Assembly: GCA_031763025.1 (NCBI GenBank)
Contig: JASSKH010000010.1
Location: forward strand, 4,583,901-4,647,900
Reading direction: 5' to 3'
Source of the DNA: Macrocystis pyrifera
Taxonomy: Eukaryota > Sar > Phaeophyceae > Laminariales > Laminariaceae
Length of the DNA stretch: 64,000 nt
This document shows positions 1 to 32,955 of this stretch, piece after piece. The translations under genes and the position numbers were made by a program. Under the pieces are notes generated by a model that searched no databases, was not told the DNA's origin, and was given only the letters and a program-made list of their open reading frames with translations. Within the stretch, counting starts at the first letter, position 1, and each line of letters begins with the position of its first letter.

Positions 1-325
1 AGCCGGGCGCGGCGCTGCTGTCTTGGGGCATGACGAGCCACTCGAAGAGTCGGGTGGGCGTGCAGAAGGCGGTCAGGGGTATGGTGTCGTTGTCGATGGT
101 GATTTGGTGGAACGAAGACACGAGATCGAAGAGGGAGAAGATACGGCCTTTACCGAGGGAGTCGAGAACCTCGTCGACGCGGGGGATGGGCAGTTGGCCC
201 AGGGAGCTGATGGCGTTAAGCTTTTTGTAGTTCACGGTTATCCGAACATTGTCGTCTTTCTTGGGAATGGCGACCATAGGGCTGGCGTACGGGGAAGTGG
301 AGTGTTGGATCAGACCGGCAGCCAG
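1..325 (-). pseudogene. Reverse transcriptase continuation beyond an in-frame TAG
   Basis: The frame that stops at TAG (326-328) stays open to the window edge, about 108 codons, and reads as canonical Ty3/gypsy reverse transcriptase. It includes SPYASPMVAIPKK, VNYKKLN, the motif A segment FSLFDLVSSFHQI with its catalytic Asp, and the TAFCTPTRLFEWLVMPQ segment that precedes the active-site YxDD (outside the window). The stop replaces a codon at the usual Q/W-L-x-A-G position of the motif. This is a nonsense mutation in an otherwise continuous domain, or less likely a read-through codon. Confidence 0.8.
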
Positions 326-2722
326 CTATTGGTCGAGCACAGCGTCGGCCTTTTTGGCGAGGATAGGGTTGATGCGGTAAGGGCGGGAAAAGACGGGGGC
401 GCTGTCCGGGGGGATGGAAATCTTGAACGGAATAAGGGAGCACGAGCCGAAGTCGGTTTTGGACGTGGAAAAAACGTCGGGAAACTCGCACAGAACGTCC
501 CCCAGAGCTGTGATGACCGAGGGGGACCAACCAGAACCGCGGAGGTCGAAGGAGATTTCGCGGAGGTGTAGCGGAAGTCGGTCCCAGAGGCGGAGGAAGC
601 TTGTCCGTTGGTCGGCAGTTAGGCGTTCCAGGAGTTTGGGGCAAGGGGTCTTGGGGGGATCCGCGGGAGGTGTACCGTCGTCATGCACGGGGATGTTGTC
701 GTGCAGGGCGTGAACGTCGTGTACAGCTGACGCTGGAGGTGACGTTGCGGGGAGACCTTGCAGTGCTGAGACCGGAATATGTATGAGGGGAGAGGAGGAA
801 GTCCCCAGAAGGTCGCCTGGTTCGAGATCAATGAATCCCGAGAGCGGGATGCTTTGGTAGCCGTTGGCGACGAAGATTTCGGTTTTGGAGTCAAGGCCGT
901 CGCGGGGAAGCATGTCAACGAGGTAGTGGCCGGTGGGTGCCGGAATGCCGGAGGGACGCACCAGATTTACCTGGACGAGAGACGGCGTAGCCGAAAGTGA
1001 GATTGCGTGAGCGCCGGCGAACTCGAGGTGTAGGGTGTCGGGAGAAGGTCGGTGGTCGTGGATGAAAGTGGAGAGACCATGCTTGTAAGAAGTGGTTAGG
1101 GAGAGCTCGCCAAAGAGCGGTCGCGAGGGGAGGGGAGGCAGGGTTACGTACGTGGATTGTTCGAACCGCATCCAGCTATCTCGTCCCAGTAGAACGGGGT
1201 GTTGCAGAGTCCCATGTGGCACTATGCACGCCCATACGGCGAGCTCGGCGGAGGGAGTGTTGTCGTGTAAGAACTGGATGCTGAGTCGGACGGAAATCGA
1301 AGTGAGGAGCGGACCGGATCTACCAAAGCCGCCCCAGGAACGAGGAGCATCGTGTGGTTCGCATATGTCCGACGCAGCGTTGTTGTGCTTCATACGGGCC
1401 CAAGCTTCAGCGGAGATGAAGGTCTGGGGGGGGCCGGTGTCCAAGAGAGCTACAAGGCCGTAGCGGTTGGATGCGGAGGGTCCACTGTGTACTCTGATCC
1501 TGGTCGTGAAGGAGGCGTCGTCGATGGTAACGATACCGCTCGAGAGGCCTGGCCCATGTTCGGCAATGAGGGAGGGGAGCGCGGAAGGGAGAGCAGCTCC
1601 GGACGAAATGGCAGAGACCAATGCGTGCGGACGAGTGGCCTCAGGAAGGAAAGGGGGCAGTAGGTGATCCAGCGTGGAGTGCGGTGTAGAAGCTGGAACG
1701 GTTGCGCTGATCTCATGGATCTCATTTTCGGAGGGTGAAACGCGAGAGGCGCGGGGGGGGGCGGGTGGGAGTAGAGGGGGGGAGGCAAGCTGGTGGCGGA
1801 TCTTCATGAGGATGTCGCCCCACAAGTTGAGTCCCGGCCAGTGTGGAGGTTGTAAGGCTCGCGTATCGTTACACCTGAAGCCTATGCCCCAGACGAGGTC
1901 GTAAGGACTTGCTTCGGCGAGGAACTTGTCGCCGGTGTCTACGAGTTGTTGTAGTAAAGGGGGAGCCGAAAACTTGGCGAGGTTGCCCTTGAAAACGATG
2001 TCGTACCGATGTTGTGCCCAAAGCTCTTGATTAAAATTGGAGACCGAGCGGCCGAGGCGTTTTTGTTGTGCGGGATTCGGAGAGGACATGATCATCCGGC
2101 GAGCTGCTGTGTCGCCGAAAAGCTTGACCTTTTCCGACATCATGTACTGTTCCGCACAGTTGTAGTGCTCGTTATCTACGGTGAACGTCGAAGGATACCA
2201 CTGGGAAAAAACCGAGGAATGATCCCAAAAAAAAAGAATTTGGGAGGGGCTCAGGGTCGAAGGGAGTGGAGAGGGGGACGTTGTGTGGGACGTTGTCGGG
2301 GAAGGCGTGGGTGAGACGACTTCGCTCCCCGAAAACGTGTGGGGTAAGGTCGATTGTGACGAGGCCCCGGGAGGATGTGCGTGACGGCGAGACGCTCGTG
2401 ACAGAGCACCCTGGGAGTCCCTGCTAACAGCATTTAACGTATGCGGAGGAGGGAATAACTCGGAAGAACATGCGGTGCCTGTAGTAGTCCGTGACCGGGG
2501 GGTGTGGGTGTCGGTACAGGTGGCTCCTGGCATAATCATGGTGACTTGGTCGAGTCTTCCGCGGGTGAATCCGCGGGAAAACCATCCCTTGGGCCCAGGG
2601 AGAGTGGTGTGGTCAGCACGGGGCGGGCAGCTACGAGTCCAGGAGATCCTGCAGAACCAACGGAGGTCGAAGTATGTGCTGTCCGGGATCGACGGACGCT
2701 GGTTGACGTGTGCCGATAACAT
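326..2722 (-). CDS. Retrotransposon pol with NADAR, retropepsin and RT start
   Basis: This 798-residue frame has three recognisable parts. Residues 1-160 are Ser/Pro/Thr-rich with no match I know. Residues 162-313 are a full NADAR (YbiA/DUF1768) domain. Residues about 395-535 are a retropepsin-like protease with LLDTG as catalytic motif and LLGRDSW downstream, the usual ILG(R/D) strand. Residues about 690-798 lead into Ty3/gypsy reverse transcriptase (FSRPYRINP), stopped by TAG. The ATG at 2722 is the first in a frame not clearly coding before residue ~120, so the true start is uncertain. A neighbouring frame (2536-3081) looks more protein-like upstream, and a frame change between them is likely. 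The product would be a polyprotein cleaved by its own protease. A NADAR module between gag and protease is not part of the standard Ty3/gypsy layout. Confidence 0.8.
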   Translation of the reverse strand: MLSAHVNQRPSIPDSTYFDLRWFCRISWTRSCPPRADHTTLPGPKGWFSRGFTRGRLDQVTMIMPGATCTDTHTPRSRTTTGTACSSELFPPPHTLNAVSRDSQGALSRASRRHAHPPGASSQSTLPHTFSGSEVVSPTPSPTTSHTTSPSPLPSTLSPSQILFFWDHSSVFSQWYPSTFTVDNEHYNCAEQYMMSEKVKLFGDTAARRMIMSSPNPAQQKRLGRSVSNFNQELWAQHRYDIVFKGNLAKFSAPPLLQQLVDTGDKFLAEASPYDLVWGIGFRCNDTRALQPPHWPGLNLWGDILMKIRHQLASPPLLPPAPPRASRVSPSENEIHEISATVPASTPHSTLDHLLPPFLPEATRPHALVSAISSGAALPSALPSLIAEHGPGLSSGIVTIDDASFTTRIRVHSGPSASNRYGLVALLDTGPPQTFISAEAWARMKHNNAASDICEPHDAPRSWGGFGRSGPLLTSISVRLSIQFLHDNTPSAELAVWACIVPHGTLQHPVLLGRDSWMRFEQSTYVTLPPLPSRPLFGELSLTTSYKHGLSTFIHDHRPSPDTLHLEFAGAHAISLSATPSLVQVNLVRPSGIPAPTGHYLVDMLPRDGLDSKTEIFVANGYQSIPLSGFIDLEPGDLLGTSSSPLIHIPVSALQGLPATSPPASAVHDVHALHDNIPVHDDGTPPADPPKTPCPKLLERLTADQRTSFLRLWDRLPLHLREISFDLRGSGWSPSVITALGDVLCEFPDVFSTSKTDFGSCSLIPFKISIPPDSAPVFSRPYRINPILAKKADAVLDQ
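1784..2239 (-). other. NADAR (YbiA-like) domain inside pol
   Basis: Residues 162-313 of the pol frame match the family end to end. The opening strand is ILFFWDHSSVFSQWYP. It is followed by YNCAEQYMM with the conserved acidic residue of the helix that starts with E-Q-Y-M, then KRLGR, LW, GNLAKF and a block LAEASPYDLVWGIGF with the conserved D-x-x-W-G-x-G. The close is W-P-G-x-N-x-W-G-D-I-L-M-x-x-R. Known members are N-glycosidases: plant and bacterial YbiA-type enzymes act on riboflavin-pathway intermediates, and others remove ADP-ribose from guanine bases. No key position looks lost, so I infer a fold that could be active. The substrate in a retroelement is unknown. Confidence 0.87.
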
Positions 2723-3081
2723 CGTTCGTCAGAGGACGTAGATGAGTTGGGAGTCGATGGCCCTGGGGGAGGAGCAGAGCCGGAGAGGGAGTGGATACCG
2801 CTGTTGACCGTTGTTGTCGTGTCGCCCACAAGATTGGCAAGATCCGCAGACATTTCGGCAATGTTGGGCAAGGCGCGGCGTCGCGCATCGACTGGGGACA
2901 CCGAGGGGAGCGTTGAGGGAGTGCTCGGTGTGCCCGCCTCCTCCTGCCCACACCTCAAACCAACCGCTTGAACAAGGGAGCCAACCCTAGATCGAGGGGT
3001 TGATATTGAAGATAGGTTAGAAGGGGGGGGAAAGAGGGGGAGGGGTCGGGAGAGTAAGTAGAGCCGGCGGCTCCTAAACAA
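2536..3081 (-). CDS. gag-pol spacer frame, function unknown
   Basis: A 181-residue frame lies between the gag stop (TAA, 3281-3283) and pol, in a different phase from both. It has a plausible helical stretch (ARRRALPNIAEMSADLANLVG) between Ser/Thr/Pro-rich ends and no domain I recognise. The gag/pol phase itself has TAA at 3281-3283, TAG at 3074-3076 and a further TAA near 3018. A G8 run (C8 on the coding strand, about 3023-3030) is a natural slip point. It may be part of the same ancestral polyprotein, separated by frameshifts. Confidence 0.35.
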   Translation of the reverse strand: MFRSRRLYLLSRPLPLFPPPSNLSSISTPRSRVGSLVQAVGLRCGQEEAGTPSTPSTLPSVSPVDARRRALPNIAEMSADLANLVGDTTTTVNSGIHSLSGSAPPPGPSTPNSSTSSDERCYRHTSTSVRRSRTAHTSTSVGSAGSPGLVAARPVLTTPLSLGPRDGFPADSPAEDSTKSP

Positions 3082-3280
3082 TACGCTGCCCGAGGGTCCA
3101 GAGAGGTACCTGGCGCGGTCGCGTGTAGTGCCGCTGGTGAAGTCGCGAGCGGTTCTTCACCATCGGCTGGTCAGTTAGTACGGAAGGTGCCCGGTTGCCG
3201 GGAGTTTTGATTGCCTCCGTGTTGTGAAGGACCGAGGCGCATGTTAGCTGGGGTAGTGGGGGTCTGGGTTGTGGGACCGG

Positions 3281-5215
3281 TTACAGTGAGGGCAGAGGAG
3301 GGAGGTCCTTGAGGGGAGGGGGGGGGGAGAGCTGTGGTGCCGAGTTATCCCTGAGTGGTGGTTGTTGGGGAGAGTAGTTTGTCCACTGAGAGCCTGCAGT
3401 ACGGTTGGAGTTGCCGTGGGAGCGCTCGTTTTTAAAATGAGAGTTGGACCGGCGGTTGTTGTTGGAATTGCCGGCAGAGTTGTGTCCCCTCGAGTTGAAA
3501 CGCTTGGAGTAAGAGTTCGAGTTCCGATGAGCATGGCGTTCGTACTGTCCCCGACGGTATGAAAGCATACGTTGTTGCCACTGTTGAAAAGCGTAGCCTC
3601 CGTCGTTGAGCTGGCCAAGCCGGGGATTGAGCACACCTGACTTGTTTATGAAGGGACTCTGACACGTCTTTACGCTGTGGTCCTGTCCGCCACAGTTGAG
3701 GCATACGCCACGCCAAGTGCGAAGAGCAGTCGCTCTGGCAGTAGCGCCAAGAAGAGGACTCCAGAGGGGGGGGTCGGTGGTCGAAAACGTGGTAGATACC
3801 ATGTACACTTCGTCGAAGTGTTCGAGAGGCCAGTTGTTGTAACCCAGAGTGAAAGGGTCAATGTCTGGGGACGTAGAGACGTTCATGACATAGGGGTTGC
3901 GTTGGGAACCTTGTTGGTTTGGGTTGGAATGATTGCGCGAACGCGTCTGCTGAGCAGGGGCCGATGACGGCGGGGACGACGAAAACGTCGTGTGGCCTCC
4001 TGGGGAGGTATAAGAAAAATATTTTTCGCCATTTATGGCAGGTGTATTATTCGTAGCGTACACTTCATGAGCCTGCCACATGGCCGAGACCGAAGGGAAA
4101 GGTTCTACCGCAGTCATCAATTCACCCGGGTACAAAACCGGAGTCAAAGCAGGAAACTGTCTACTAACACTGGTACGCACTACCTCTAATACCATGGCGT
4201 CGCTAGGCTTAAAGACCTTTTCAGAACCTTGTACAACCGCTGTCAACTCCCTCAAAGCACGCAAATAAATTGAATACACCGTGCCCGTTGGTACTCCGAA
4301 CGCTTGAAGCTTCTCGAATGCGCGGCCTTGGTCGCCGTGGTCGAAGTGCGTGCTCAGCAGACGCAAGAGTAGGCGAAAGGCAGACGGGCCGGCATTGTCC
4401 TTTTCCCGAAGGTGATCGCGCACCTGCTTAAAAAAGTTGTTGATAAGGAGGGACATCGGGGAGTTGGTGCCTGTCTTGATGGCTTTCCGGAAACACCGGT
4501 GAAGCGGGGTGATCCATCCTGGTGACCAACGCAGAGAGTCTAGAGTACCGTTCGGGGAGTCGTCACAGCGTGAGAGAATGTCCGCTAAGACAAGTTTGGC
4601 GCTAGCTATGAGTTGTTGAACTCCTACACAGTCGTCGGTTCCCGCAGGAAAAGGGAGTGGGTCGATGAGCTCCAATTTTCGAGAGTCCAAGTCAATGTAT
4701 TTGCGGTTGACCTCAAAGTCGTGGGTACTAGGTGCAGTGATTTGGGGCGTAGTGGGAGTTGCGGCAGGGGGGGCCGGTGCGGGAGTGGAGGTGGCCGGAG
4801 TGTAGGTGGGTGCGACTGGGTGTTGAGGGAGTACCGATGTAGTGTGAGTCGTGCTGTTTGGGAGAGGTGTTGGAGCCTGTACTGGCGCAATGGGGGTTGC
4901 GAGACCGGGCGTCGTAGGAAGCGGAGGGGCTTGGACTGCAACATAGGTTGCATGGGCGGGCAGATGGGTGAGGGTCGCTGGGAACTGTGGAGGTAGTGGT
5001 GAGGGAGCTACGTGATACTGTGGAGGTAGCGATGTGGTGGGGGTTGCGGTATTAGAGAGAGGAGTGCTTATCTGTAGTGGCGCATTTGGCTGATACTGAC
5101 CCAACGGTGGGGCAGTAGAGATTGTAGCGCTGGTTAGGGGGGGGGGGTTGATGCTGGGGCGGTAACGGCGTATCCGAAAGGTCGGTTGCCGCAAAACAAA
5201 CAGATAGCGGAGCAA
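3281..5215 (-). CDS. gag-like protein with CCHC zinc knuckle
   Basis: This is a 644-residue frame. Residues 1-165 are Pro/Thr/Ala-rich. Residues about 165-395 are mostly helical and fit a retroelement capsid (W-x-P-G-W motif near 230, then a long helical block). Residues 505-518 form a CX2CX4HX4C nucleocapsid knuckle (CLNCGGQDHSVKTC). After it comes an Arg/Asn/Ser-rich basic tail suited to RNA binding. Its start overlaps the upstream frame by 164 bases in a different phase, so the first ~50 residues may be a shadow and the capsid may be joined to the upstream frame by a +1 shift. It ends at TAA 3281-3283, well before the pol frame. Confidence 0.7.
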   Translation of the reverse strand: MLRYLFVLRQPTFRIRRYRPSINPPPLTSATISTAPPLGQYQPNAPLQISTPLSNTATPTTSLPPQYHVAPSPLPPQFPATLTHLPAHATYVAVQAPPLPTTPGLATPIAPVQAPTPLPNSTTHTTSVLPQHPVAPTYTPATSTPAPAPPAATPTTPQITAPSTHDFEVNRKYIDLDSRKLELIDPLPFPAGTDDCVGVQQLIASAKLVLADILSRCDDSPNGTLDSLRWSPGWITPLHRCFRKAIKTGTNSPMSLLINNFFKQVRDHLREKDNAGPSAFRLLLRLLSTHFDHGDQGRAFEKLQAFGVPTGTVYSIYLRALRELTAVVQGSEKVFKPSDAMVLEVVRTSVSRQFPALTPVLYPGELMTAVEPFPSVSAMWQAHEVYATNNTPAINGEKYFSYTSPGGHTTFSSSPPSSAPAQQTRSRNHSNPNQQGSQRNPYVMNVSTSPDIDPFTLGYNNWPLEHFDEVYMVSTTFSTTDPPLWSPLLGATARATALRTWRGVCLNCGGQDHSVKTCQSPFINKSGVLNPRLGQLNDGGYAFQQWQQRMLSYRRGQYERHAHRNSNSYSKRFNSRGHNSAGNSNNNRRSNSHFKNERSHGNSNRTAGSQWTNYSPQQPPLRDNSAPQLSPPPPLKDLPPLPSL

Positions 5216-6389
5216 TATCGTGATCGGTCACTTGCCTGTTGTCTCCGGAGATGTAGTCTTCGTCGGTTGACGAGGAGAAATAGTCGCCAACACTGTGCTT
5301 TCGTGGGCGTTGTTCAGGCCGAGGGGAAGGTCCGCTGTTGCTGGACCGGGGGCGTGTGGTCGAACTGGACGATGACGCGCGGCGGGCCGGGATGTCGGAG
5401 GTGCGGCTGTTGTGGTTGTTGTCGTTGCCATCGCGATCATGGTCGTCGTCCGGGCGCCTGCGGGTGACCGGTAGACGGCCGTCCGAGCAACCCATCGCCC
5501 GCTGTTGGCGCTGACCGCGGGAGGCGTTATATTCTGCCACGGTCGGCCAAGTGTGGTCGTATGTGGAGTGAAAAGCCCTCAAGATGGTGACCAATCTGAG
5601 TAGTTTGACACGCACGACGTCGTCGGTTACATTAGGAAGAGATTCCAGGGCGTGCCGGAGGGTGGTTGAGGCGGTAGAATGATAGAACCCTTTGATGGCG
5701 GAGGCAGCCGACGAGATGGCTGCCCGCCTGTCCTCTGGGACATGGTGTGACGAGATTAATTGGCGTATGGAAACGTGTAAAAACGCGAAGTCAGAAAACT
5801 CCAAGACAAACCCCAGCGGGGCAAGGTTTCTCGTGGGAGAAGTGGGGGGAGGCGGTGTGGCGGGAGCTGAAGAGTCGGCCGGGGGAGTAGGGCCGATGCT
5901 GGGAGTCGAGGCAGCCGTCGAAACCGCGCGGAAGGGAGTGGGATCGAGGCCTTGAGAGGCCAGAGTTAGGGCATGTTTGGCCCTTAGTGAGGCCACCAGT
6001 TTCTCGGCGCGGTCGATCTCGTCCCGCTCCCTCGCCTGTCGCTCCTGTAGGAGCCTCGAAAGGCGCGCTTCACGCCTGGCGCGTTGCACATTGTTGTCTT
6101 CGAGCCACGCCTGTAGTTCCGAGATGGACGGCTCGTCCTCCGCAGGTGTTGTTGTTGCGGCGGGAGGCGCAGCTGACGTGGTGTCCGCCGAGGCCGGGGG
6201 TCGCTCTGGAGAGGGAGTGGCGAGGGAGTTTTCCGAGGTGAGGAGTGTCGGAGCAGGGGGGGCTGTTGCGGTGGCTACCGGGGTAGAGGGTGAGTTGTCC
6301 ATGTCGTTTGTGTGAATGCCGTCATCCTCATCACCGGAGGACTCCGGCCCAAAGTCCACGCCATCCTCTTCATCTTTCACGTTTACCAT
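5052..6389 (-). CDS. N-terminal gag-like frame with coiled coil
   Basis: This 445-residue frame begins MVNVKDEEDG. An acidic, Ser/Pro/Thr-rich head (1-87) is followed by a strongly charged heptad-like helix at about 88-145 (ELQAWLEDNN, RLSRLLQERQARERDEI), a Pro-rich linker, a folded-looking segment (~185-290) and an Arg/Asp/Ser-rich tail. I know no specific family. Its position directly before the zinc-knuckle frame, on the same strand and overlapping it, suggests it is the N-terminal half of gag. An oligomerising coiled coil would fit that. Confidence 0.55.
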   Translation of the reverse strand: MVNVKDEEDGVDFGPESSGDEDDGIHTNDMDNSPSTPVATATAPPAPTLLTSENSLATPSPERPPASADTTSAAPPAATTTPAEDEPSISELQAWLEDNNVQRARREARLSRLLQERQARERDEIDRAEKLVASLRAKHALTLASQGLDPTPFRAVSTAASTPSIGPTPPADSSAPATPPPPTSPTRNLAPLGFVLEFSDFAFLHVSIRQLISSHHVPEDRRAAISSAASAIKGFYHSTASTTLRHALESLPNVTDDVVRVKLLRLVTILRAFHSTYDHTWPTVAEYNASRGQRQQRAMGCSDGRLPVTRRRPDDDHDRDGNDNNHNSRTSDIPARRASSSSSTTRPRSSNSGPSPRPEQRPRKHSVGDYFSSSTDEDYISGDNRQVTDHDIAPLSVCFAATDLSDTPLPPQHQPPPPNQRYNLYCPTVGSVSAKCATTDKHSSL

Positions 6390-6465
6390 TGTTGCTGTTG
6401 GCAGAAGCCGACGACAAGGGAGCGAAGGGAGGGAAGGAGGGAGGGGAGGGGAACATGTGTGAGCC

Positions 6466-8741
6466 CTAAGACATGTGGCGTAGCGAGCGGGGTGTGTGGG
6501 GGGGGGGGGGCTTGGGGGTGCTGTTATCCATGTGCGAGCGAGTTTTATAGTGACCGGTCGCGGTGATGGAGTGTGTTCGTGTGCGCCCTCCGTCCGTCTG
6601 AGTGTACTGTAGACTCTTGTGGCGCTCTGGTTGAAGCCTAGTTATATTTGGGCTCAGGTGGCCCCGCTCGTGTCCCGTGGTGGAAGGAGGTATAGAGATA
6701 CGACCTTTTAGACCCGTTTGAAGAGGAAGTGTAGAGACACTTCTGCGCACTTGACTGTAGTAACGGGGTGTAGAGACACTCCGTTTGTTCGCAACAGTAT
6801 CTTGAATTTCTTGAACGACGCTGGCTGGCCCGGGGGTTTCGTACTGGGAGGGGTGTAAAAGGGACCCGTGCCCGGGCTGGTTTGGGAGGGCGGGAGTCGT
6901 ATACCCGGGAGAGGAAGGGGAGGGAAAAACCGAAAAACAATCAAAAAGAATGCAAAAGTCCGGAGGAAGGTGGGCACGGGAAGGTGGTGTCCGTCGAACG
7001 GGTGGAAGAGGGTACCGTACCAACCATGTACTTGACTCGCGTTGTGATTCGAAGACAAAACTCTCGGCAAAATCATCCTCCAATTGTTGACTCTGTGTCT
7101 GAAGACAGCTGTCGGTTGCTGTCAGATTCAGAGACCGAATAATTGTACTGGGATTCGCGTCTTCTACGTCGCGAAGTGTGTTAGTAGTCGTCAAAAGTTC
7201 CACTGAATTTTTATCCGGAAAAGAATTTCCATCCGTACGACTCAAAATTTCTCTCCCATCGCCGAAGGTTCCACCATATTCATCCAAAACTGTACAAGCG
7301 TGTACTTCTGGAAAAAAAATACGATTGTGCCTGTCCAAAACGAGTGGTGTAACGTTGAAAATTTCGTCATAGTTTTCCAAAGCTGCAAAAGTGTGCAAAT
7401 CTGGAAAAAAATTACGATTAGGACGGCTGGAATTTACGTAAGGTTCGTCGAAAAGTATATCACTCGGGGGACCTGCGTGTTTTGGCAGATCTGAAAAAAA
7501 ATGCGATTACGACGGCTGGAATTTACGTATGTTTCGTCGAAAAGTACATCACTCGGGGGACCTGCGTGTTTTGGCATACCTGAAAAACAAATGCGATTAC
7601 GACGGCTGGAATTTACGTGTGTTTCGTCGAAAAGTACATCACTCGGGGGACTTGCATGTTTTGGCGAATCTGAAAAAAAAATGCGGTTACGACGACTAGA
7701 ATTTACGTATGTTTCGTCAAAAAAATCATAACTCAGGGGACCTGCGCATTTTGGCAAATCGAAAAAAAAAGTGCGATTAGGACGACTAGAATTTACGTAT
7801 GTTTCGTCAAAAATTTCATCACTCAGGGGACCTGCGTATTTTGGCAGATCTGAAAAAAAAATGCGATTAGGACGACTAGAATTTACGTATGTTTCGTCAA
7901 AAATTTCATCACTCAGGGGACCTGCGTATTTTGGCAGATCTGAAAAAAAAATGCGATTAGAACGACTAGAATTTACGTATGGTTCGTCAAAAAATTCATC
8001 ACTCAGAGGACCTGCGTCCAAAAATATACTCTCCTTGCGAAGTGAAAAGCAGAGAGAGTAGTATTTTGCGAAGGCGTCCGATGAGTCATCGGTGCAAAAT
8101 ATGCTCTCTAAAACGTCACGCGCGTGAGGTTCCACTAAGTTGGTGAGGGAGGCGGGGGCACTGCGTTCAGGGTTTTTCTGTGACGCGGTACGTACGAGGT
8201 CCAGATAATTTTCAAGCTCATCAGGGCTTAACGAAGACCAATGAACTGCGTGCTCTGTCTGAGGGAAATCGGACAAAAATGTAGCATCATCAAACTGTGC
8301 GTTGTCCAACTCATCATTCGTGGACGGAGCGACTACGTCCGTGGGTGGAAGCGGGTGAGGTAACTGCAACCTGTCCATTACACGCGCAAAATGACTATGG
8401 TGTGGAGAACGAGGTGCCAGGTGTTCGCAAAAAGTTTTATACAAGGCCTCATCGCGAGGATATGTTATATGAAAATCGTATGGGCTACAAGCGTCGGTCG
8501 GCTCTGTGGGGGTGTACGACTGAGATTTTTTTGTCTTCAGCCGTGATAGTTGGTGTGAGTAAGCGTTTAACGCAGCGATAGTCGCTGTCGGTGTCGACAT
8601 GAGCTTATTTGCATCAGCAACAGAGATGTGCTTTTCAGCGACGTCTGGTTCGTCGTCGAAATCCAAACTATAAATAGCTTCATGAAAAAGGATGATCTGA
8701 GGTGAGATCACTACGGAAAGCTCGTCAGACCGGTCGACCAT
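6466..8741 (-). pseudogene. Repeat-protein frame (30-residue repeats), broken by one base
   Basis: The frame 8741-7434 (435 residues) starts with an acidic, non-repetitive region of ~240 residues, then six 30-residue repeats, consensus like GPLSDEIFDETYVNSSR plus NRIFFSDLPKYA. An A tract at 7494-7501 has 8 A where most sister repeats have 9, which shifts the frame. The repeats continue in the new phase through at least two further, more divergent units into the frame 7398-6466, which ends in a Ser/Pro/Thr-rich tail. One original gene of roughly 750 residues is therefore split. It lies 77 bases upstream of the gag-like frame on the same strand, so it could be an extra retroelement gene or an unrelated gene. 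I recognise no family. The phase upstream of the ATG at 8741 also stays open for some codons, so the start is uncertain. Confidence 0.5.
7224..8020 (-). repeat. 90-bp in-frame tandem repeat array
   Basis: About seven clear units recur every 90 bases (anchors at 7951, 7861, 7771, 7681, 7591, 7501), then one of 89 bases and one of 93, with at least one more decayed unit toward 7224. Divergence rises toward the low-coordinate end. The units encode the 30-residue repeats described for this frame. Confidence 0.9.
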
Positions 8742-9780
8742 TAGAAACGCGCGGACGCGAAGGCGGAAGTTATTGCACAGGCGCAGGCGTGCGCGCTACG
8801 GCGGTCGTCTCTAGAAGCGGGCGCAACGCGCGCGTTGCGTTACGGTGCAGTGCTACCCAATGGAGAACACGAACGCTGGTAGACAGAAAGACAAAGACAG
8901 AAAAAAAAGGAAGAAAGACAAGGTACTCTAAAATGCAGTGACTCGACTCATGCCAAAACAAAAAAAAGGAGGAAGGCTCACCTAAAGGCAGAGGAAGGCT
9001 CGAAGAACAGGTCGAAGCGGTGGCCACGAGCAGAGATGTAGTCCGTAAGACGCCGCCAAGTGTGATGTGGGAGAGGAGTAAGGGTTCCAAGGGATGATGA
9101 TCCACAGAAGAAGTGTGACACAGGTGTCTGTGCTTGGTCAAACTCAGACCTAGTTCTTATTGGAGTTCTCGTATTTTATTGGTGCGAAGCTTGCACAAAA
9201 GGGGCAAGTGAGAAGAGTGAGAAGGGAGGGGGGGGGGAAGCAGATGCTTTTTGAAGCCAGAAGTATCATCTGGCTTCAACCGGCTATAATCTACTGGCAA
9301 GGGTGCATGCTATATCCTCAACTTCAATAGTGCAACACCCCGTAAGGGTGCATGCGTTACCCTCGACTTCAACAGTACAACACCTCGTAGAACCTGACGA
9401 ACATACCACGTGCGTACATCTCTGTCTCCTCGGCTACTCAGATGCTAGTCTGCGTATCATGTCCGCGAATACAAATATCTTAATCCAAACGGGATACGTA
9501 CGTGTACGAGGAATACTAGCACTGCGTACCGGATACTACAACTACGAAATATCTTATTCCAGACGGTAGAAGGGATACGTGTACGGAAGAATACTAACCT
9601 GCGCACCGGTATTACAAATGCAAGATATCTTATTCCAGACGGTAAAAGGAATGAGATCCAATTACTAGAATAATATCTAACGGTCCCTACTGCTGGTTGG
9701 TCTATATACTATAAAGCAGGGTACTCTATCACATAGTACTCTGTTGTAGTTCTGTGGTACGAAGATAGTCAAAAGTGAGA
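8742..9780. other. No gene recognised; short repeats
   Basis: The stretch is GC-rich near 8750-8880, then A/G-rich. A 9-bp stem (GAAGCCAGA/TCTGGCTTC) lies at 9255-9279. A ~46-bp direct duplication spans 9300-9391 (starting AGGGTGCATGC). Three diverged ~75-bp units containing AATATCTTATTCCAGACGG span about 9470-9655. No LTR boundary or splice structure could be supported. Confidence 0.6.
9300..9655. repeat. Two short tandem duplications
   Basis: Units of ~46 bp (9300-9346 and 9347-9391) are followed by three ~75-bp units carrying AATATCTTA(A/T)TCC and a TGCG(T/C)ACCGG end. Mismatches show they are not recent. Confidence 0.6.
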
Positions 9781-9793
9781 TTAAGAAAAAAAA

Positions 9794-9885
9794 CGGGGAT
9801 GGTGCGAGTCGAACCTCGGAAGCGAAAATGTTATCCAGCAAGTGCAGTTTAGACCTATACGCTAGAACAGCGCTCGTACAACTGG
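9794..9885 (-). other. Degenerate tRNA-like Pol III unit
   Basis: Read on the minus strand there is an A-box-like TAGCGTATAGG, a B-box-like GGTTCGACTC about 40 bases on, and a T8 run directly after the ...CACCATCCCCG end, as Pol III terminators are placed. The acceptor 5' strand does not pair with CATCCCC, and the T arm lacks a proper five-pair stem. I read this as a tRNA pseudogene or the head of a lost SINE, not a working tRNA. Confidence 0.35.
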
Positions 9886-10584
9886 CATGTCGTGTTTTTT
9901 ACGCAAATCTAAAACACTTTGCACGATCTTCTACAGCAGTAGAGTAGCTGGTACAGGTACGACAGCATATTCAGCAGTACTGCTGTAAAATGCAACGCGA
10001 GGAACGTACGTGTACTGATCCCCTTTCAGCTGGCTCTAGGATCTATCGATCAGCAATGTAGGACACACTGCAATCAGAACTACTACTATACTGTACTGCT
10101 GTAAGTATATTACGAACGCTGCTGTACGAATGAGCCGCAGTACGATCATCCATCGCGCAAGGTGCGCTCACTGCTGCTGCTGGGCAGCAGGGTTGGTTGT
10201 GGGTGCTGTAGGAAGCTGGAGGTAAGCACGCTCTGTGCACTGCTGTGTGTATTGTTCTCTAGGCGGTGGTCCGTGCTCCGTCAACAACCCAAAAAAAATG
10301 TATGATGAGCCGGGGGGAGAAAACAGAGAGCATGGCAATGTACCGATATACGTACGTGCAAAATAAGGCCTCTTTACCGAAACCAGGGAAATCGTCTTAT
10401 TCACTCCCGCCGGAAAAAAAAATTTTAAGCGCCTGCCACGCGCTTCAGAGTGCACGGATCGCGCCGAGACCTAGACCAATGTGTCCGGCAGGGCTTCCCG
10501 TGTCCGTGTGCTTACTGTTTTGCCTAAAAGTGCTCGTGCGAAGAGAAAAGTTGGCAAAAGTACGAAAATTTGACAAATATACGT
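9886..10584. other. No gene recognised
   Basis: Mixed sequence with CTG/CAG-rich patches (10040-10260) and an oligo-A/T-rich right end. The frames here lack protein-like composition and none matches a family I know. Confidence 0.5.
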
Positions 10585-13221: not shown

Positions 13222-13620
13222 GCTTCGACAATAGACGAGGGGGGTCACCTGTCGATGTATATGTATATTGTCTGCGACAATAGATTGTGGAATTTATCTA
13301 TGGATAGATATTGTCGGCGACAATAGACTGGTGATATTGTCGATCGATAGACATTGTCCAACACAATAGATGTGGTGAACTTCGTCCGTCGATGACCATT
13401 GCAGGCCACAATAGATTGTGCGAGATGTCTATCGATAGCCATTGGTGACCACAATAGATTGTGCGAGAGGTCTAACGATGGTCATTGCGGGCCACAATAG
13501 ATTGTGCGAGAGGTCTATCGACGACCATTGTCGACCACAATAGATTGTGCGATATGTCTATCGATGGCCGTTGCCGGCCACAATAGATTGTACAAACTAT
13601 CTATCCATCGATAACAATCT
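13222..13620. repeat. 43-bp satellite with ATTG/CAAT dyads
   Basis: Anchors CACAATAGATTGTGCGAGA fall at 13407, 13450, 13493, 13536 and 13579, exactly 43 bases apart, with more divergent units before them. Each unit carries a dyad ATTGTC-N-GACAAT form and a palindrome close to TATCGATA. Confidence 0.92.
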
Positions 13621-25738: not shown

Positions 25739-28258
25739 GTGTGTGTGTGTGTGTTCTTCACATTAAACCGTTCTTCTACTCGTCGACATCCAGCAAGCCC
25801 AGTGTCGGTGCTGATTCTTCACCCTAGAAAGATACGAGCTCTGTGGTCACAGACTACGACACAGAGATAACACACCGTGATGCATTAATAGCCTACGTAA
25901 TACCATGCCTTCGCACTAGGTGCGGCCGACACAACATACATACATACGCCAGCAACCAAAATACACCATAAAGAAAGAGAAGCAACGAAAAAACCAAACC
26001 GACAAAGAACAAGAAAAAGAAAAAGAAAAGGGGAAGAATCCCAAATAAATAAATAAAATGGGAAGCCAAAGCTCAGACACATACATACTTACCCCGAGCA
26101 TGAGCCAAAAGGGACGTGCAAGGGGAAAGATACGAGAAGGAAAAAGGGGACTATGCATCCCGGTGAACATTTAACTAAGTAAAAAGAGCAATAGTGAGTG
26201 GGCCAAAATACGCTCGTCACCCACCCACTATGTAGTACTTCTTTCATAAGGATAAGAAGGGAAAAAAATCAAAATGCATACCGAACGGCCGCAGCAGTTG
26301 GCGGTACGAGTAGCAAAGAAAAGTCCAACCTATTAGTCGGCCTGGTACCTTGCTACCCTATCTGCGGCCTCTCTGCTACTCTCTTCTACCGCGGTTTCCC
26401 TTCTACTCCTCCTGTTCCCCCCCCTGCCCCCATACACTTGTACGGTGTTCCTTCTACCCCTCCTGCTGTTACCCCTCCCTCCATTCCCTCTAACACTACC
26501 TGCAGCGGATGCACGGCGCTGTCTACTCAGCTTGGCCTCAGCCTCGTGCCACCTGCCCATGAACTGTTCAGCTGCTTCGAGGATTCCCCGGTACCACTTT
26601 CCCGTCTGTTTTGCTGCAGTGGGCCACAGTGCGGTCCCAACTCCAAAGACGTCTCCTGAGAGTTCCCCCTCCCCTCCATTTCCCTCTAAGGGACTACCTG
26701 CAGCGGATGCACGGCGCTGCTACTCAGCTGCCATCATCCTCGTGCACCTGCCCTGAACTGTTCAGCTCTTGATAGGAGATTCCCCGGTAAACCACTTTCC
26801 CGCTGTTTAGAGCTGCAGTGGGCCACAAAGGGAGTCTTCCGTTGATCCCTCGGTGGCTTTGAACACTCTAAGGTCCTCAGCAATTGCCCTAGGCCAAGTC
26901 TTGGGCTGCCCGCCTGGTTTCGGGCTCCCCCCACCAGCGATCGTCCCGAACATCAACCGACTGGGCAATCGCCCCTCGTGTTGCCGCACCACAGCCCCCG
27001 CAAAGAAGAGTCGCCGTTTACGGATGGTCGTTTCGATACTTTCGCATCGTGTTATCCTGAGCGCCTTCGCATACGAGAGGGTGGTGTGGTCGGTGCGTAG
27101 TCGGCGCTGGAAACCAATGACTCGCAGAAGGACTTCGTGGTGGGCTGATCGAAACTTGGCGAAGTGGTCCGCATTGAGGGTCCACGTCACGCAACCGTAC
27201 AGCAAGGTCTCAATCACCTCGGCCTTCAGCATCCGGACTTTCAGACTAAGCGGTGCGTTCGTCCTATCGTACAGTTCCGGACCATACCGTTTGAGGCATG
27301 CCCGCATCAGACGGATTCGTCGCTCGATTTCGAAGGAGAGGTCAGCGTTCTCGTGGATAATGCCTCCTAGGTACAAAAACTGGGTCGTCTGTTTATACTT
27401 TTGGCCTGCAGCTTCGATCGCGAGCGGTGAGGTGGTAAACGTCTGATCCGGTGTTCGTAGGAGCATCGTCTCTGTCTTCTTCTCGGATACCGTGAGACCT
27501 ACTGCTTCGAAGACAGTCACGATGACTGTCATCATTCTTGCAAGGCCTTCCGCCGACCTTGAGACTATCCCTGCGTCGTCTGCATACAACATGCCCCACA
27601 CAGCCCTTTGCACGCATGCCAACGGTTCCTCTTTTCCGACAACCCTGTCCTCTTCGAGATGAACCAAATCCCTTACGATGCATTCGTCTTTGCTGAGGCG
27701 TACCAGCACGATGTGTATCGCAGCGGCGAAGAACACGTTGAACAGTAACGGCGATAGTACGCAGCCTTGCCGCAGTCCCTGGGTTACATTGAACCAGTCC
27801 GAGTGTTCACCGTCATCCGCACGAACGCGAGCCCGCATGCCTTCGTGAAAATTGCGAATGATTGTGAGCATCTTGGTTGGTACACCAAGGCGTGTGAGTA
27901 CCTCCCACAACAGTTCTCGGTCGACAGAGTCGTACGCTTTCTGCAAGTCGATGAAGCACATGTACAGGGGGATTTTCTTCTGCCGCCCGAGCTGCTGCAA
28001 CCGGCGCACGACAAACAGCATATCGGCTGTTGACCGTGCGGGGCGGAAGCCGCACTGTTCTTCAGGGAGTATATGCTCGGTCTCGCAGTAGCTGCTTAGA
28101 CGGGACGCAACGATTTTCAGCAACACCTTGCCTGCGTGAGCAACAAGCGAAATACCTCTGTAGTTGTTGCAATCAGTTCTATCCTTCTTTTTATGAAGGG
28201 TTTTTATGATCGCATCTTTCCATTGCTGGGGGACTTCTCCCGTTACCCAAACGTTAAC
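25739..28258 (-). mobile_element. LINE-A, 5'-truncated, with AACAT target duplication
   Basis: The 3' end is the GT repeat at 25739 (CA tail on the coding strand), with a 3' region diverged from LINE-B. The 5' truncation lies inside the reverse transcriptase at 28258. AACAT occurs at 25734-25738 and 28259-28263, and the undisturbed site in TIR copy 3 reads GTGAACATAGAAAAC. This is a clean target-primed insertion. Confidence 0.88.
26333..26806 (-). pseudogene. LINE-A C-terminal coding end, duplicated and damaged
   Basis: The coding end (WHEAEAKLSRQRRASAAG, ending ARYQAD) is present at 26333-26560. A second, poorer copy of part of it lies at about 26690-26830, repeating GCGGATGCACGGCGCTG, CTGAACTGTTCAGCT and CTGCAGTGGGCCAC with many small indels. 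The RT frame stops at 26807 within the second unit. Confidence 0.7.
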
Positions 28259-28354
28259 AACATAGAAAACAACAGAGTCGTACACACAACAACTATTAAT
28301 ACCTGAAGCACATTGCACAGCCCAAAGGAGAAAAAGTGAAACCAGCGTACGCAT
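26807..28354 (-). CDS. LINE-A reverse transcriptase (partial, chimeric N-terminus)
   Basis: This is a 515-residue frame. Residues 1-32 are not LINE: they come from TIR-element sequence (28259-28354) and only by chance resemble a signal peptide. From residue ~33 ([15 protein letters not shown]) it is LINE reverse transcriptase. It holds [22 protein letters not shown], motif [30 protein letters not shown], the catalytic YADD (257-260) and VSEKKTETM. After these comes the C-terminal [21 protein letters not shown] region. The endonuclease is missing through 5' truncation. The catalytic centre looks intact, but a functional protein is unlikely. Confidence 0.85.
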
Positions 28355-29238
28355 GTATGCATGTATATACGTGCTTTTACGTTGTTGTTGTTGTTGTTTT
28401 CTTCACATTAAACCGTTCTTTCTACCCGTCGACATCCAGCACAACCAGTGTCCGTGCCGATTCTTCAAACCTAGAGAGATACAAGTTCTGTGGTCACAAA
28501 GCTACGCCACAGAGATACTACGTTGCCACGTATGTAATGCAATGCCATGCCATCATACTGCGTACGACATGCACGACATACACATTCCATGACCTAGAGA
28601 AACAAAAACGAAACAAAGAGAAAAAACAAAAACAAAAACAAAGACAATTCGAAAGAGAAAAGAAACAAAAAAAGAAACTAGATATACCTGGTATATGTAT
28701 ATACTTCAGTATAGCAGCAAACCATCGTACCCCCACGTAGGGGACGTGGCAGACACTTGAAAAGAACGAGCTGGAAAAAAAAAGAAAAAGAAGAAAACAC
28801 CACTAGTCGTCAACAGAGTAAGACTAAGAACCAAGGGAAAAATAACAGGCAAACCAAACAAAGCACAAGGCATGCTCCAGGTAGCGGCAGCAGTTTATGG
28901 TACGAGTAGCACAGCCAGGGTCTCCCTGCTGGCCCGCCTGGTACCTTGTTACCCTGTCTGCCACCATCGTCCAGCGTTCGTCAACTATGCCCGGCCCCTC
29001 GGCGTCAGACAGTACGACACAAGCAGAGCAGGCTCGTCATCCACCCACGCCACACGACTCCTTCAATAAGGCTTATCAATCGGAGAAAGGAAGAGAAATG
29101 AAAATCACATAGGGTCACCGCAAAGAAGACAATAAAATGAAATAAAAATAAACAAAAACAACAGGAAGACAAAGGAAGACCACGTTCGAACCAGCTGCAC
29201 CAGTTGGTGGTACGAGTAGTATAGGCATCTTCTACTTC

Positions 29239-30032: not shown

Positions 30033-32684
30033 TCACATGAGACGGATCCGTCGGTCGATTTCGAGCGAGAGGTCAGCATTTTCGTGGATAACGCCGCCTA
30101 GGTACAAGAACTGGGCCGTCTGCTTATACCTCTGGCCTGCTGCTTCGATAACGAGCGGTGGTGCGAGGGTTTTCTGGTCTGGCGTTTGTAGAAGCATAGT
30201 CTCTGTCTTCTTTTCCGACACCGTAAGGCCTGCTGCTTCGAAGACAGTCACGATGACTGTCATCATTTTCGCGAGCCCTTCAGCCGACTTCGAGACAATC
30301 CCTGCGTCATCGGCGTACAACATGCCCCATACAGCCCTTCGCACGTACGCCAACGGCTCCTGCTCCTTCGTCCCGACTACTCCAGCATCACTAAGTTGGA
30401 CCAAATCCCTTACGATTGCTTCGTCATGGCTAAAGCGTACTAGTACGACGTGCAACGCAGCAGCGAAAAATACGTTGAACAGTAACGGTGACAGCACACA
30501 GCCTTGCCGCAGCCCCTGCGTGACATCAAACCATTCCGAGTGCTCGCCGTCATCCGTACGCACGCGAGCCCGCATGCCATCGTGGAAATTACGGATAATT
30601 CTCAGCATCTTGGTTGGTACGCCAAAACGTGTGAGTACTTCCCATAACAGCTCTCGGTCGACAGAGTCGTACGCTTTCTGCAGATCGATGAAGCACAAGT
30701 ACAGGGGGATTTTCCTCTGTCTTCCAAGCTCTTGCAACCGGCGCACGACAAACAACATATCAATCGTTGATCGTGCGGGGCGGAAGCCGCACTGTTCCTC
30801 CGGGAGTAATTCCTCGGTCTCGCAGTAGTTGCTGAGGCGCGACGCGACGATTTTCAACAAGACTTTGCCTGCGTGGGCAACCAGCGAAATCCCTCTGTAG
30901 TTGTTGCAATCAGTTCGGTCCTTCTTTTTGTGAAGGACCTTGATGATCGCGTCTTTCCATTGCTGGGGGACTTCTCCTGTTACCCAAACATTGACAAGGA
31001 TGTTGTGAAAGCACTGGGCGAATGCGGGGTGGTCGATTTTCAGGAGTTCGGCCGGGAGACCATCTGGCCCGACAGCTTTCCAGTTTGACATCCCCTTAAG
31101 TGCTTCCGTCATCTCGTCCATGGATGGTTCATCTCCGAGCGACAGTTTAAGCGGTCGTGGTGGCAAGAGGTCGATGATCGTAGAATCGAGTTTAAGCGAT
31201 TTCGTGTTCAAAAGTTTGTGGTAAAACCTCCCCCACCGTTCACGAATTCGCACCTTATCCCGCAACAGCGTGCCATCCTCGTCCCTAATGAGCTGTTCGC
31301 TTCTCGCTTTAGTCCCTTCCAATCCTACCGTACTCTTAAGGTGCTTGTAAAAGCCTCTCTGGTCGTTGTTCGCTAGTAGTCGTTCGGTTTCAGCGAGGTA
31401 CGCTTCGAAGTACGCATGCAGTCCTTCGGCAATCACCTTCTGCAAGTTCGCACACGCAGATCTCAGTGTCTTCCACGCGATTCTGTTCTGGGGGTGGGCA
31501 CGCAAGAATTGCCGTGCATCCTCCCTCGCTGTCCATGCTAATATGAATGCGGTCACGGTTTCGGCAGACTCACACCATCCATGTCTGCGGTGGCGACGTG
31601 GAGGGGGTGGTACCTCTTTTTCGACCGCATCAATAATAGCCGCAGTGAAAAACTCAACCATGCCAGACGTATTACGGGGCTGGTTAGGCTGGTTGAGAGT
31701 GGAGATGACCCTCGCGACTACTCGTTCACGACACTTTCCATCGGACATAAAAAGCTGCCTGTCGAACTCTCGGCGTTTTGTCGGTCTACGTATTTGTCTG
31801 TTGGACGCAAAGTGACCATTGAGTCGGACTTTGACATACAAGATGTTGTGGTCTGAGTCAGCCTTAGCTGGGGCAGGAGGCTGTGGGACGACTTTAACAT
31901 CTTGTACTCTAGGTCGATGGGCTTGACGGGTTAGGATGTAGTCGATCCGCTTACGGTCACTCGGGCTGGTGCCGTTGTGTGTATGCGAAATCCCGCCCTT
32001 GCGCATGCTGAAAAACGTGTTGGTGAGAGCTAACTTGCAATTGGTGGCGAACGACAGGAGTCGTCTGCCATTACCATTACGAACATCACGCCCATATGCT
32101 CCAAGCACTCTATTTTCATCATCACCACACCCTTCCATCCTCTGTCCAGTTCGCGCGTTGGCATCCATCAGTACAAACAGACACTCTTTCGTCGGGATCT
32201 TTTCCACCAAGTCCTCCAGCTTCTGCCAGAAGCTACGTTTCAGTCCAACGTCTTTGGTACAATCAGTTGGAGCATACGCGACGACGAAATTAACTGCCTC
32301 GTATTTGCTAGCCAGCTCAAAGCGCGTAGACATAAGCCGCTCGTCAATGAACTGATGAGTGTACACAGCCTTACTGCACAACGATTCCTTTACAGCTAGA
32401 CCTACTCCGTACAGCCCTTGCCTAGCAACTGTTGTTTCCTGACCTGAACAGAAAACGCGATACCCTGCCGCACGAAACGTCGTGCTACCGGTCCTCCGGG
32501 TTTCCTGCAGGCCAATGAAGTCACAGCCGAGTTGCCATCCCTTCGCCAGTACACTCTCAATTGGTGGCGAACGACAGGAGTCGTCTGCCATTATCATTAC
32601 GAACATCACGCCCATATGCTCCAAGCACTCTATTTTCATCATCACCACACCCTTCCATCCTCTGTCCAGTTCGCGCGTTGGCAT
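30033..32684 (-). CDS. LINE-B ORF: EEP endonuclease plus reverse transcriptase
   Basis: This 883-residue frame starts with 1-50 uncertain. Residues about 54-288 form an exonuclease-endonuclease-phosphatase (AP-endonuclease-like) domain: FIGLQETR with catalytic Glu61, YAPT (137-140), MDANARTG with Asp174/Asn176, RIDYIL (Asp248) and SDHN (277-280). Residues about 540-850 are reverse transcriptase: [28 protein letters not shown], motif [14 protein letters not shown] (Asp667), [14 protein letters not shown] and YADD (790-793). It would nick target DNA and copy LINE RNA at the nick. Ordering and residues match APE-type LINEs. I cannot assign the clade. It ends at TGA 30033-30035, where LINE-A has a sense codon, so the copy is likely dead. 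Confidence 0.92.
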   Translation of the reverse strand: MPTRELDRGWKGVVMMKIECLEHMGVMFVMIMADDSCRSPPIESVLAKGWQLGCDFIGLQETRRTGSTTFRAAGYRVFCSGQETTVARQGLYGVGLAVKESLCSKAVYTHQFIDERLMSTRFELASKYEAVNFVVAYAPTDCTKDVGLKRSFWQKLEDLVEKIPTKECLFVLMDANARTGQRMEGCGDDENRVLGAYGRDVRNGNGRRLLSFATNCKLALTNTFFSMRKGGISHTHNGTSPSDRKRIDYILTRQAHRPRVQDVKVVPQPPAPAKADSDHNILYVKVRLNGHFASNRQIRRPTKRREFDRQLFMSDGKCRERVVARVISTLNQPNQPRNTSGMVEFFTAAIIDAVEKEVPPPPRRHRRHGWCESAETVTAFILAWTAREDARQFLRAHPQNRIAWKTLRSACANLQKVIAEGLHAYFEAYLAETERLLANNDQRGFYKHLKSTVGLEGTKARSEQLIRDEDGTLLRDKVRIRERWGRFYHKLLNTKSLKLDSTIIDLLPPRPLKLSLGDEPSMDEMTEALKGMSNWKAVGPDGLPAELLKIDHPAFAQCFHNILVNVWVTGEVPQQWKDAIIKVLHKKKDRTDCNNYRGISLVAHAGKVLLKIVASRLSNYCETEELLPEEQCGFRPARSTIDMLFVVRRLQELGRQRKIPLYLCFIDLQKAYDSVDRELLWEVLTRFGVPTKMLRIIRNFHDGMRARVRTDDGEHSEWFDVTQGLRQGCVLSPLLFNVFFAAALHVVLVRFSHDEAIVRDLVQLSDAGVVGTKEQEPLAYVRRAVWGMLYADDAGIVSKSAEGLAKMMTVIVTVFEAAGLTVSEKKTETMLLQTPDQKTLAPPLVIEAAGQRYKQTAQFLYLGGVIHENADLSLEIDRRIRLM

Positions 32685-32955
32685 CCATCAGTACAAACAG
32701 ACACTCTTTCGTCGGGATCTTTTCCACCAAGTCCTCCAGCTTCTGCCAGAAGCTACGTTTCAGTCCAACGTCTTTGGTACAATCAGTTGGAGCATACGCG
32801 ACGACGAAATTAACTGCCTCGTACTTGCTAGCCAGCTCAAAGCGCATAGACATAAGCCGCTCGTCAATAAACAAATGAGTGTACACAGCCTTACTGCACA
32901 ACGATTCCTTTACAGCTAGACCTACTCCGTACAGCCCTTGCCTAGCAGCTGTTGT
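32038..32955 (-). repeat. ~395-bp tandem duplication at the LINE-B 5' end
   Basis: The segment 32038-32435 (endonuclease coding, starting ATTGGTGGCGAACGACAGG) recurs at 32558-32955 with a few substitutions. The junction near 32557 joins it to an unrelated phase-compatible stretch. The outer copy gives the separate frame 32557-32979. Confidence 0.9.

What the first reader, a model, noticed from the sequence alone, without database searches (positions are those of the whole stretch)
1784..2239. NADAR domain built into a Ty3/gypsy pol polyprotein
Seen: a complete NADAR domain with its family motifs (SQWYP, AEQYMM, LW, KF, DLVWGIGF, W-x-G-x-N...LM-x-x-R) in one open frame with a retropepsin-like protease and the start of reverse transcriptase, on the gag side of the protease. 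Known: NADAR proteins are N-glycosidases, and some remove ADP-ribose from guanine in nucleic acid. Inference: the element may use it to erase host or defence ADP-ribosylation from its RNA or cDNA, or to act on NAD-linked metabolites. The domain shows no lost key residue although the element around it has stops, which hints at past selection.
Basis: partly seen in the sequence, partly recalled or inferred. Interest (0 to 1): 0.88.

Follow-up and report, generated by a model that had tools for sequence, protein, structure and literature searches.

The report
NADAR enzyme inside algal Gypsy retrotransposon
A jumping gene, probably from a brown seaweed, carries an intact-looking enzyme domain of a kind that elsewhere strips ADP-ribose from the base guanine; many related elements keep it too, a 2025 paper already described such elements in Ectocarpus, and its job in the element is still untested.

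Summary
Window 1784-2239 (minus strand) is a NADAR domain (Pfam PF08719, E 1.2e-43) in an 800-residue frame that runs on into a retropepsin-like protease and the N-terminal edge of reverse transcriptase. It is not a one-off: 25 of 34 hits cover NADAR, linker and protease start, and P0169 has NADAR, protease and RT in one frame. Eight active-site residues are kept in 28-30 of 30 aligned copies; NADAR is conserved like the protease, the linker between them is not. Two related elements appear to lack the domain and stand opposite all 18 NADAR-bearing rows on the pol tree. Hits that bear organism names in the protease-RT search are Ectocarpus and an Undaria gene model. NADAR in Gypsy Pol is already in print for Ectocarpus (PMC12477816). 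Most likely it is a particle-carried guanine-ADP-ribose hydrolase acting on the element's own RNA or cDNA, placed like the betaretroviral dUTPase; that function is inferred, untested. No DNA of sister copies was reached, so no dN/dS. New member of a known kind.

The parts
1787..2233 (-). NADAR domain (Pfam PF08719, YbiA type), residues 166-314 of the 800-aa frame
   Evidence: Pfam E 1.2e-43; 8BAU E 1.6e-19 by sequence; model matches 8BAU and 2B3W
326..2728 (-). 800-aa open frame: NADAR, linker, protease, N-terminal edge of reverse transcriptase; ended by a stop at 326-328
   Evidence: 25 of 34 hits aligned over 95-99% of residues 150-440
1094..1558 (-). retropepsin-like aspartic protease (DTG and LLGRD motifs, motif names recalled)
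   Evidence: AlphaFold2 mean pLDDT 83.1; Foldseek best E 1.7e-4, 21 matches at E <= 0.001
2..325 (-). beginning of reverse transcriptase, same frame, after a stop codon; runs off the window edge
   Evidence: Pfam RVT_1 E 4.6e-9
3281..5227 (-). gag-like frame (capsid region and zinc knuckle), same frame as NADAR-protease but cut from it by stops
   Evidence: 32% identity over 463 columns, E 1e-64 for the single comparison, to P0033, which has gag and the larger part of a NADAR in one 1054-aa frame
3662..3703 (-). CX2CX4HX4C zinc knuckle of gag
   Evidence: read directly from the translation
2729..3280 (-). gag-to-NADAR linker, broken: in the gag/NADAR frame it has three stops inside and one at its low end (2729-2731), next to the stop that ends gag (3281-3283); an open frame of another phase lies at 2536-3156
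5052..6641 (-). frame upstream of gag that may belong to the element (one 81-residue block shared with an Undaria gene model)
   Evidence: 44% over 81 residues, E 3e-14 for the single comparison; overlaps the gag frame at 5052-5227

Best explanation
Shown: this is a decayed copy of a retrotransposon of Ty3/gypsy type whose relatives include brown algal sequences and whose Gag-Pol carries a YbiA-type NADAR domain between the gag zinc knuckle and the protease; the domain keeps its place and active site in relatives and is conserved about as much as the protease. Inferred: NADAR is made as part of Gag-Pol, is carried into the particle with the RNA, is released or stays fused after protease cleavage, and hydrolyses ADP-ribose from guanine bases of the element's RNA or cDNA, so that reverse transcription or integration is not blocked by such adducts. 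It would be a sanitising enzyme carried in the particle, as the betaretroviral dUTPase is.
For: Family and fold. Active site (8BAU numbering, mapped by me through the alignment; roles from PMC11543638 section 12): E43, K50, K75, R79, W89, R93, E125, D130 and W133 are identical in the window copy; over 30 element rows E43 28, K50 29, K75 30, R79 28, W89 30, E125 29, D130 29, W133 29. Constraint: mean identity to the window copy NADAR 0.479, protease 0.495, linker between them 0.181 (no significance test). Linkage: P0033 gag and most of NADAR in one frame; P0169 NADAR, protease and RT in one frame; P0163, from within NADAR to RNase H. Activity of the family: the NADARs tested in PMC11833690 removed ADP-ribose from guanosine in RNA, and the macrodomain and ARH enzymes tested did not (passages); guanine in DNA, PMC11543638. 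Parallel of place: betaretroviral dUTPase lies at the N-terminus of the protease region and in MMTV and MPMV is a nucleocapsid fusion in the virion (PMC8961515 section 12).
Against: No activity, packaging or cleavage was tested. Single copies have lost key residues (for example E43 to G in one, E125 to Q in one of 30 rows; E125 to G in fragment P0035). R93 is C in 24 of 30 element rows, though C, K and A are also common there in free-standing NADARs. P0185, and probably P0161, do without the domain, so it is not essential for retrotransposition in general. E. coli C7 NADAR and SCO5665 did not act on uracil-linked ADP-ribose (passages of PMC13036486), so the proposed mark must be on guanine; no host guanine ADP-ribosyltransferase is known to me and none could be looked for. 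No dN/dS was computed.
Confidence: 0.45

Rival explanations
1. Same packaged NADAR, but acting on small molecules: free ADP-ribose derivatives made by host defence, or reactive riboflavin intermediates as YbiA does.
For: PMC9503650 posits that viral NADARs might prefer soluble ADP-ribose derivatives, while in another passage it favours macromolecular targets for eukaryotic RNA viruses (passages). The window domain has the YbiA-type glutamate (E109 = E125 of 8BAU).
Against: Fusion into Gag-Pol next to a zinc knuckle favours a nucleic acid substrate (inference).
Confidence: 0.2
2. NADAR processes the element's RNA intermediate (for example primer or end processing), along the line the Ectocarpus authors suggest.
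For: Processing of RNA intermediates is suggested in PMC12477816 (section 5 part 1); nematode SNA-3, with three NADARs, is needed for trans-splicing (passages of PMC9303266).
Against: NADARs tested in PMC11833690 did not act on ADP-ribosylated RNA phosphate ends (passages).
Confidence: 0.15
3. NADAR is a binding or structural module (nucleic acid or ADP-ribose reader) whose catalysis is not needed.
For: It could be kept by selection on fold and binding alone; no catalysis was tested.
Against: Residues needed for catalysis in E. coli C7 NADAR or placed at the distal ribose (E43, K50, E125 positions) are kept in 28-29 of 30 rows.
Confidence: 0.12
4. Passenger insertion without function.
For: This copy is broken.
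Against: Same place in divergent relatives and conservation like the protease.
Confidence: 0.03

Closest known systems
[quoted passage not shown]
   Same: Gypsy Pol with a YbiA-family NADAR at its N-terminal region; the families of one of four lineages all carry it (section 5 part 1)
   Different: The five hits named Ectocarpus sp. CCAP 1310/34 are 42-48% identical over the matched protease-RT part; the Undaria gene model is 69%. Gypsy-12_Ec32 itself was not available to align; integrase and any chromodomain lie outside the window.
Tx1 LINE ORF1 NADARs of Crassostrea gigas, PMC12477816
   Same: NADAR in a retrotransposon protein (section 5 part 1)
   Different: Non-LTR element, ORF1, divergent; not examined here
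NADARs embedded in polyproteins of positive-strand RNA viruses, PMC9503650
   Same: NADAR in a polyprotein with the polymerase (passages)
   Different: RNA viruses, no reverse transcription
Betaretroviral nucleocapsid-dUTPase, PMC8961515
   Same: Accessory enzyme between nucleocapsid and protease, found in the virion (section 12)
   Different: Different enzyme; a likeness of place and proposed role only, not kinship
Phytophthora nicotianae NADAR (8BAU) and E. coli YbiA (2B3W)
   Same: Fold and active site; guanine de-ADP-ribosylation reported for both (passages)
   Different: Not described there as part of a retroelement polyprotein

Membership tests
NADAR (PF08719) | Curated profile score above cut-off | tested here: met
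   149.6 bits vs 35.1, profile positions 1-162 of 163
NADAR (PF08719) | YbiA fold | tested here: met
   NADAR part of the model has 10-residue block means of pLDDT 72-94 (whole model 53.8, because linker and protease part are poor); the only two PDB hits at E <= 0.001 are 8BAU (2.4e-11) and 2B3W (3.4e-8)
NADAR (PF08719) | Conserved active-site and ADP-ribose-binding residues | tested here: met
   9 of 11 positions taken from PMC11543638 section 12 are identical in the window copy, Y84 is F and D86 is Q; F is the commonest residue at Y84 and D86 is variable among 134 non-element rows
NADAR, YbiA subfamily | Glutamate, not aspartate or histidine, at the E125 position | tested here: met
   E109 in the window; E in 29 of 30 element rows
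NADAR (PF08719) | Hydrolysis of guanine-ADP-ribose | not testable with these tools
   Needs an assay
Ty3/gypsy (Metaviridae) | Order protease, RT, RNase H, integrase | tested here: inconclusive
   Window shows protease then RT start and ends there; relative P0199 has RT, RNase H, then a sub-cut-off integrase match (27.2 bits vs 32.6)
Ty3/gypsy (Metaviridae) | Gag with zinc knuckle upstream | tested here: met
Ty3/gypsy (Metaviridae) | Long terminal repeats | tested here: inconclusive
   Window 1-10500 has no second copy elsewhere in the window apart from local tandem repeats; the element's other end lies beyond base 1
[quoted passage not shown]
Ectocarpus NADAR-Gypsy lineage | One clade in an RT or pol tree | tested here: inconclusive
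   The 18 NADAR-bearing rows, window included, are not separated by the two rows that lack it (branch 99/97); the named Ectocarpus model P0172 is on the same side. Gypsy-12_Ec32 itself was not aligned and there is no outgroup.
Ectocarpus NADAR-Gypsy lineage | C-terminal chromodomain | not tested
   Outside the window

The most novel reading that the evidence does not exclude
Brown algae restrict retroelements by ADP-ribosylating guanine in their RNA or cDNA, and this Ty3/gypsy lineage answers with an eraser built into Gag-Pol and shipped in the particle: a retroelement counter-defence against nucleic acid ADP-ribosylation. My two searches nearest to this listed no paper that describes one, beyond the Ectocarpus report of the domain.
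Probability: 0.22. Interest if true: 0.85.

Novelty: new member of a known kind. Interest (0 to 1): 0.42.

Why it matters
It places a copy divergent from the named Ectocarpus hits in a NADAR-bearing element lineage, shows relatives with and without the domain, and shows that the active site is kept. That makes one claim testable: that retroelements in a eukaryote meet ADP-ribosylated guanine in nucleic acid.

Tried and rejected
One-off insertion: rejected, because relatives share the arrangement. Chance match: rejected. Loss of catalysis in the window copy: no sign. Pfam did not see the protease, so it was modelled on its own; in the longer model the protease part had pLDDT under 50 for nearly all residues and was not used. 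Single origin of the NADAR: in a 154-row tree the 20 element rows need two changes, with a metagenome protein (P0047) and a bacterial locus (L033) between them; holding them together is not rejected (p-AU 0.194). Neither one nor two captures is shown, and no donor was identified. dN/dS on sister copies: not possible, no DNA of sister copies was reached; scans of viral contigs (31 loci) and genome contigs (77 loci) gave loci matched over the NADAR region, in viral contigs and in records titled as bacteria or archaea. LTRs were not found. The host species was not established: a brown alga is inferred from named hits only ('Undpi1' read as Undaria pinnatifida is recalled).

Rows judged for absence of NADAR: of 59 hits to the protease-RT part (only the 7997 candidates sharing most words were scored), 30 show NADAR sequence (27 by BLAST at E <= 1e-5; P0160, P0165 and P0166 added by profile, which looked at 14 of the 59). 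Of the other 29: P0185 has ample room and lacks it; P0161 has some room and lacks it, but a shifted start cannot be excluded; P0157 and P0172 look to me like composite gene models and were not counted; the start of P0167 reads by eye like a shifted NADAR tail; the remaining 24 start too near the protease, inside it or beyond it to tell. The pol tree kept rows with over 300 residues of query span and thinned them at 90% identity: 33 rows, of which 18 were scored as NADAR-bearing, 2 as lacking it, and 13 were in neither group.

Full report
What is there. On the minus strand of the first 6.6 kb lies part of a retrotransposon of Ty3/gypsy type, cut off by the window's left edge. Reading from high to low coordinates: a frame upstream of gag (5052-6641) that shares one block with an Undaria gene model (44% over 81 residues); a gag-like frame 3281-5227 with a CX2CX4HX4C knuckle at 3662-3703; a broken linker 2729-3280 with three stops inside and one at its low end in the gag/NADAR frame; the 800-aa frame 326-2728 with NADAR (1787-2233) and protease (1094-1558); a stop at 326-328; and the start of reverse transcriptase at 2-325.

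Is it NADAR? Pfam E 1.2e-43. By sequence the only solved relative found at E <= 0.001 is 8BAU. In a 420-residue model made with 30 rows the NADAR part has block means of pLDDT 72-94, while the whole model has only 53.8; Foldseek finds two PDB matches at E <= 0.001, 8BAU (E 2.4e-11, NADAR of Phytophthora nicotianae with ADP-ribose) and E. coli YbiA 2B3W (E 3.4e-8). With the alignment I mapped positions named in section 12 of PMC11543638: E43 to E30, K50 to K37, K75 to K60, R79 to R64, Y84 to F69, D86 to Q71, W89 to W74, R93 to R78, E125 to E109, D130 to D114, W133 to W117 (numbers on the right count from the first residue of window 1784-2239). Nine of eleven are identical.

Is the neighbour a protease? 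A separate model of 1094-1558 (46-row alignment, mean pLDDT 83.1, best of five models whose means run from 83.1 to 41.5) gives 21 PDB matches at E <= 0.001: Ddi1, FIV, RSV and HTLV-1 proteases, a Rickettsia retropepsin-like protease, and two chains of a Pseudomonas periplasmic aspartic peptidase. The E-values are modest (best 1.7e-4); DTG and LLGRD motifs are visible in the translation.

Do sister elements carry it? Searching with residues 150-440 gave 34 hits among 7990 scored candidates; 25 align over 95-99% of the query at 38-48% identity. P0033 has gag and most of NADAR in one frame, the frame ending inside NADAR; P0011 and P0169 have NADAR, protease and the RT-side linker in one frame, P0169 with a Pfam RT domain; P0163 starts inside NADAR and runs through protease, RT and RNase H; P0199 has a NADAR tail, RT, RNase H and then a weak integrase match below the Pfam cut-off. 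Searching with residues 440-800 gave 59 hits; 30 show NADAR; the other 29 are set out in Tried and rejected. Hits of that search with organism names are Ectocarpus sp. CCAP 1310/34 (P0172, P0189, P0193, P0194, P0199) and the Undaria model P0157.

Sisters without it. P0185 has 266 residues before its protease match and no NADAR at profile E <= 10; P0161 has 125 and no significant match (E 3). In a 33-row pol tree these two stand together on one side of a branch (99/97) with all 18 NADAR-bearing rows on the other; 13 rows could not be scored. Both lacking rows have long end branches (0.91 and 0.40), so their exact place is less sure. One gain or one loss explains this; without an outgroup the two cannot be told apart.

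Constraint on the protein. Over 30 rows (window plus the 29 of 205 fetched proteins with near-full NADAR and about 100 or more protease columns), mean identity to the window copy is 0.479 for NADAR, 0.181 for the linker and 0.495 for the protease; mean pairwise identity is 0.747, 0.576 and 0.767. The pairwise means are weighted towards one closely related group; the values to the window are the better guide; no significance test was made. Counts of 30: E43 28, K50 29, K75 30, R79 28, W89 30, E125 29, D130 29, W133 29; Y84 is F in 27; R93 is C in 24 and R in 6; D86 varies. In 134 non-element rows E43, K50, K75, R79, W89, E125, D130 and W133 are nearly invariant, Y84 is mostly F, and R93 and D86 vary.

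Where the domain came from. The 154-row NADAR tree holds 20 element rows, 72 thinned database proteins and 62 thinned loci (of 94 loci with full-length NADAR, 108 held). The element rows lie in a 22-row clade (99/90) together with P0047 and L033. One clade for all element rows is not rejected (p-AU 0.194). The Ectocarpus authors proposed acquisition by horizontal transfer because their hits outside Ectocarpus were almost all bacterial; my tree names no donor and does not contradict that.

What it does. NADARs hydrolyse guanine-ADP-ribose in DNA (PMC11543638 passages and section 12; [quoted passage not shown] Placed between the zinc knuckle and the protease, the domain would enter the particle with the RNA, as nucleocapsid-dUTPase does in MMTV and MPMV (PMC8961515 section 12). 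From this I infer an eraser of guanine-ADP-ribose on the element's RNA or cDNA. Fold, active site, position and conservation are shown; packaging, activity and the host mark are inferred.

Known or new. [quoted passage not shown] Searches of the held open-licence papers: 'NADAR domain' with 'retrotransposon' (1 paper, that one), 'YbiA' with 'retrotransposon' (1, the same), 'DUF1768' with 'transpos' (2, unrelated by title), 'NADAR' with 'brown alga' (80 papers, only 10 listed), 'NADAR domain' with 'polyprotein' (3, two on RNA viruses seen as listing here, PMC9503650 also as passages, and the Ectocarpus paper), 'nucleic acid ADP-ribosylation' with 'retrotransposon' (0). Subscription papers are mostly not held, so earlier mentions cannot be excluded. 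What I add is the divergent copy, the relatives that appear to lack the domain, the residue-level check and the dUTPase parallel.

Noticed in passing
window 7395-8017: Tandem array of a 90-base unit, 6.9 copies, 90% matches; most of it lies inside a long minus-strand frame, 7434-8795, so it may encode 30-residue repeats.
   Followed up: no
window 30033-32687 and 26807-28402 (-): Two reverse transcriptase frames of LINE type; the first also has an endonuclease domain.
   Followed up: partly
window 5052-5227: The upstream frame and the gag frame overlap in different phases; decay and a programmed shift cannot be told apart.
   Followed up: no
window 13384-13608: Repeats spaced by 43 bases, 79-84% alike.
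   Followed up: no
P0039 (protein, not in window): A NADAR fragment 87% identical to the window copy over 65% of the domain is named as a Paracoccaceae MAG protein; it may be algal DNA in a bacterial bin.
   Followed up: no
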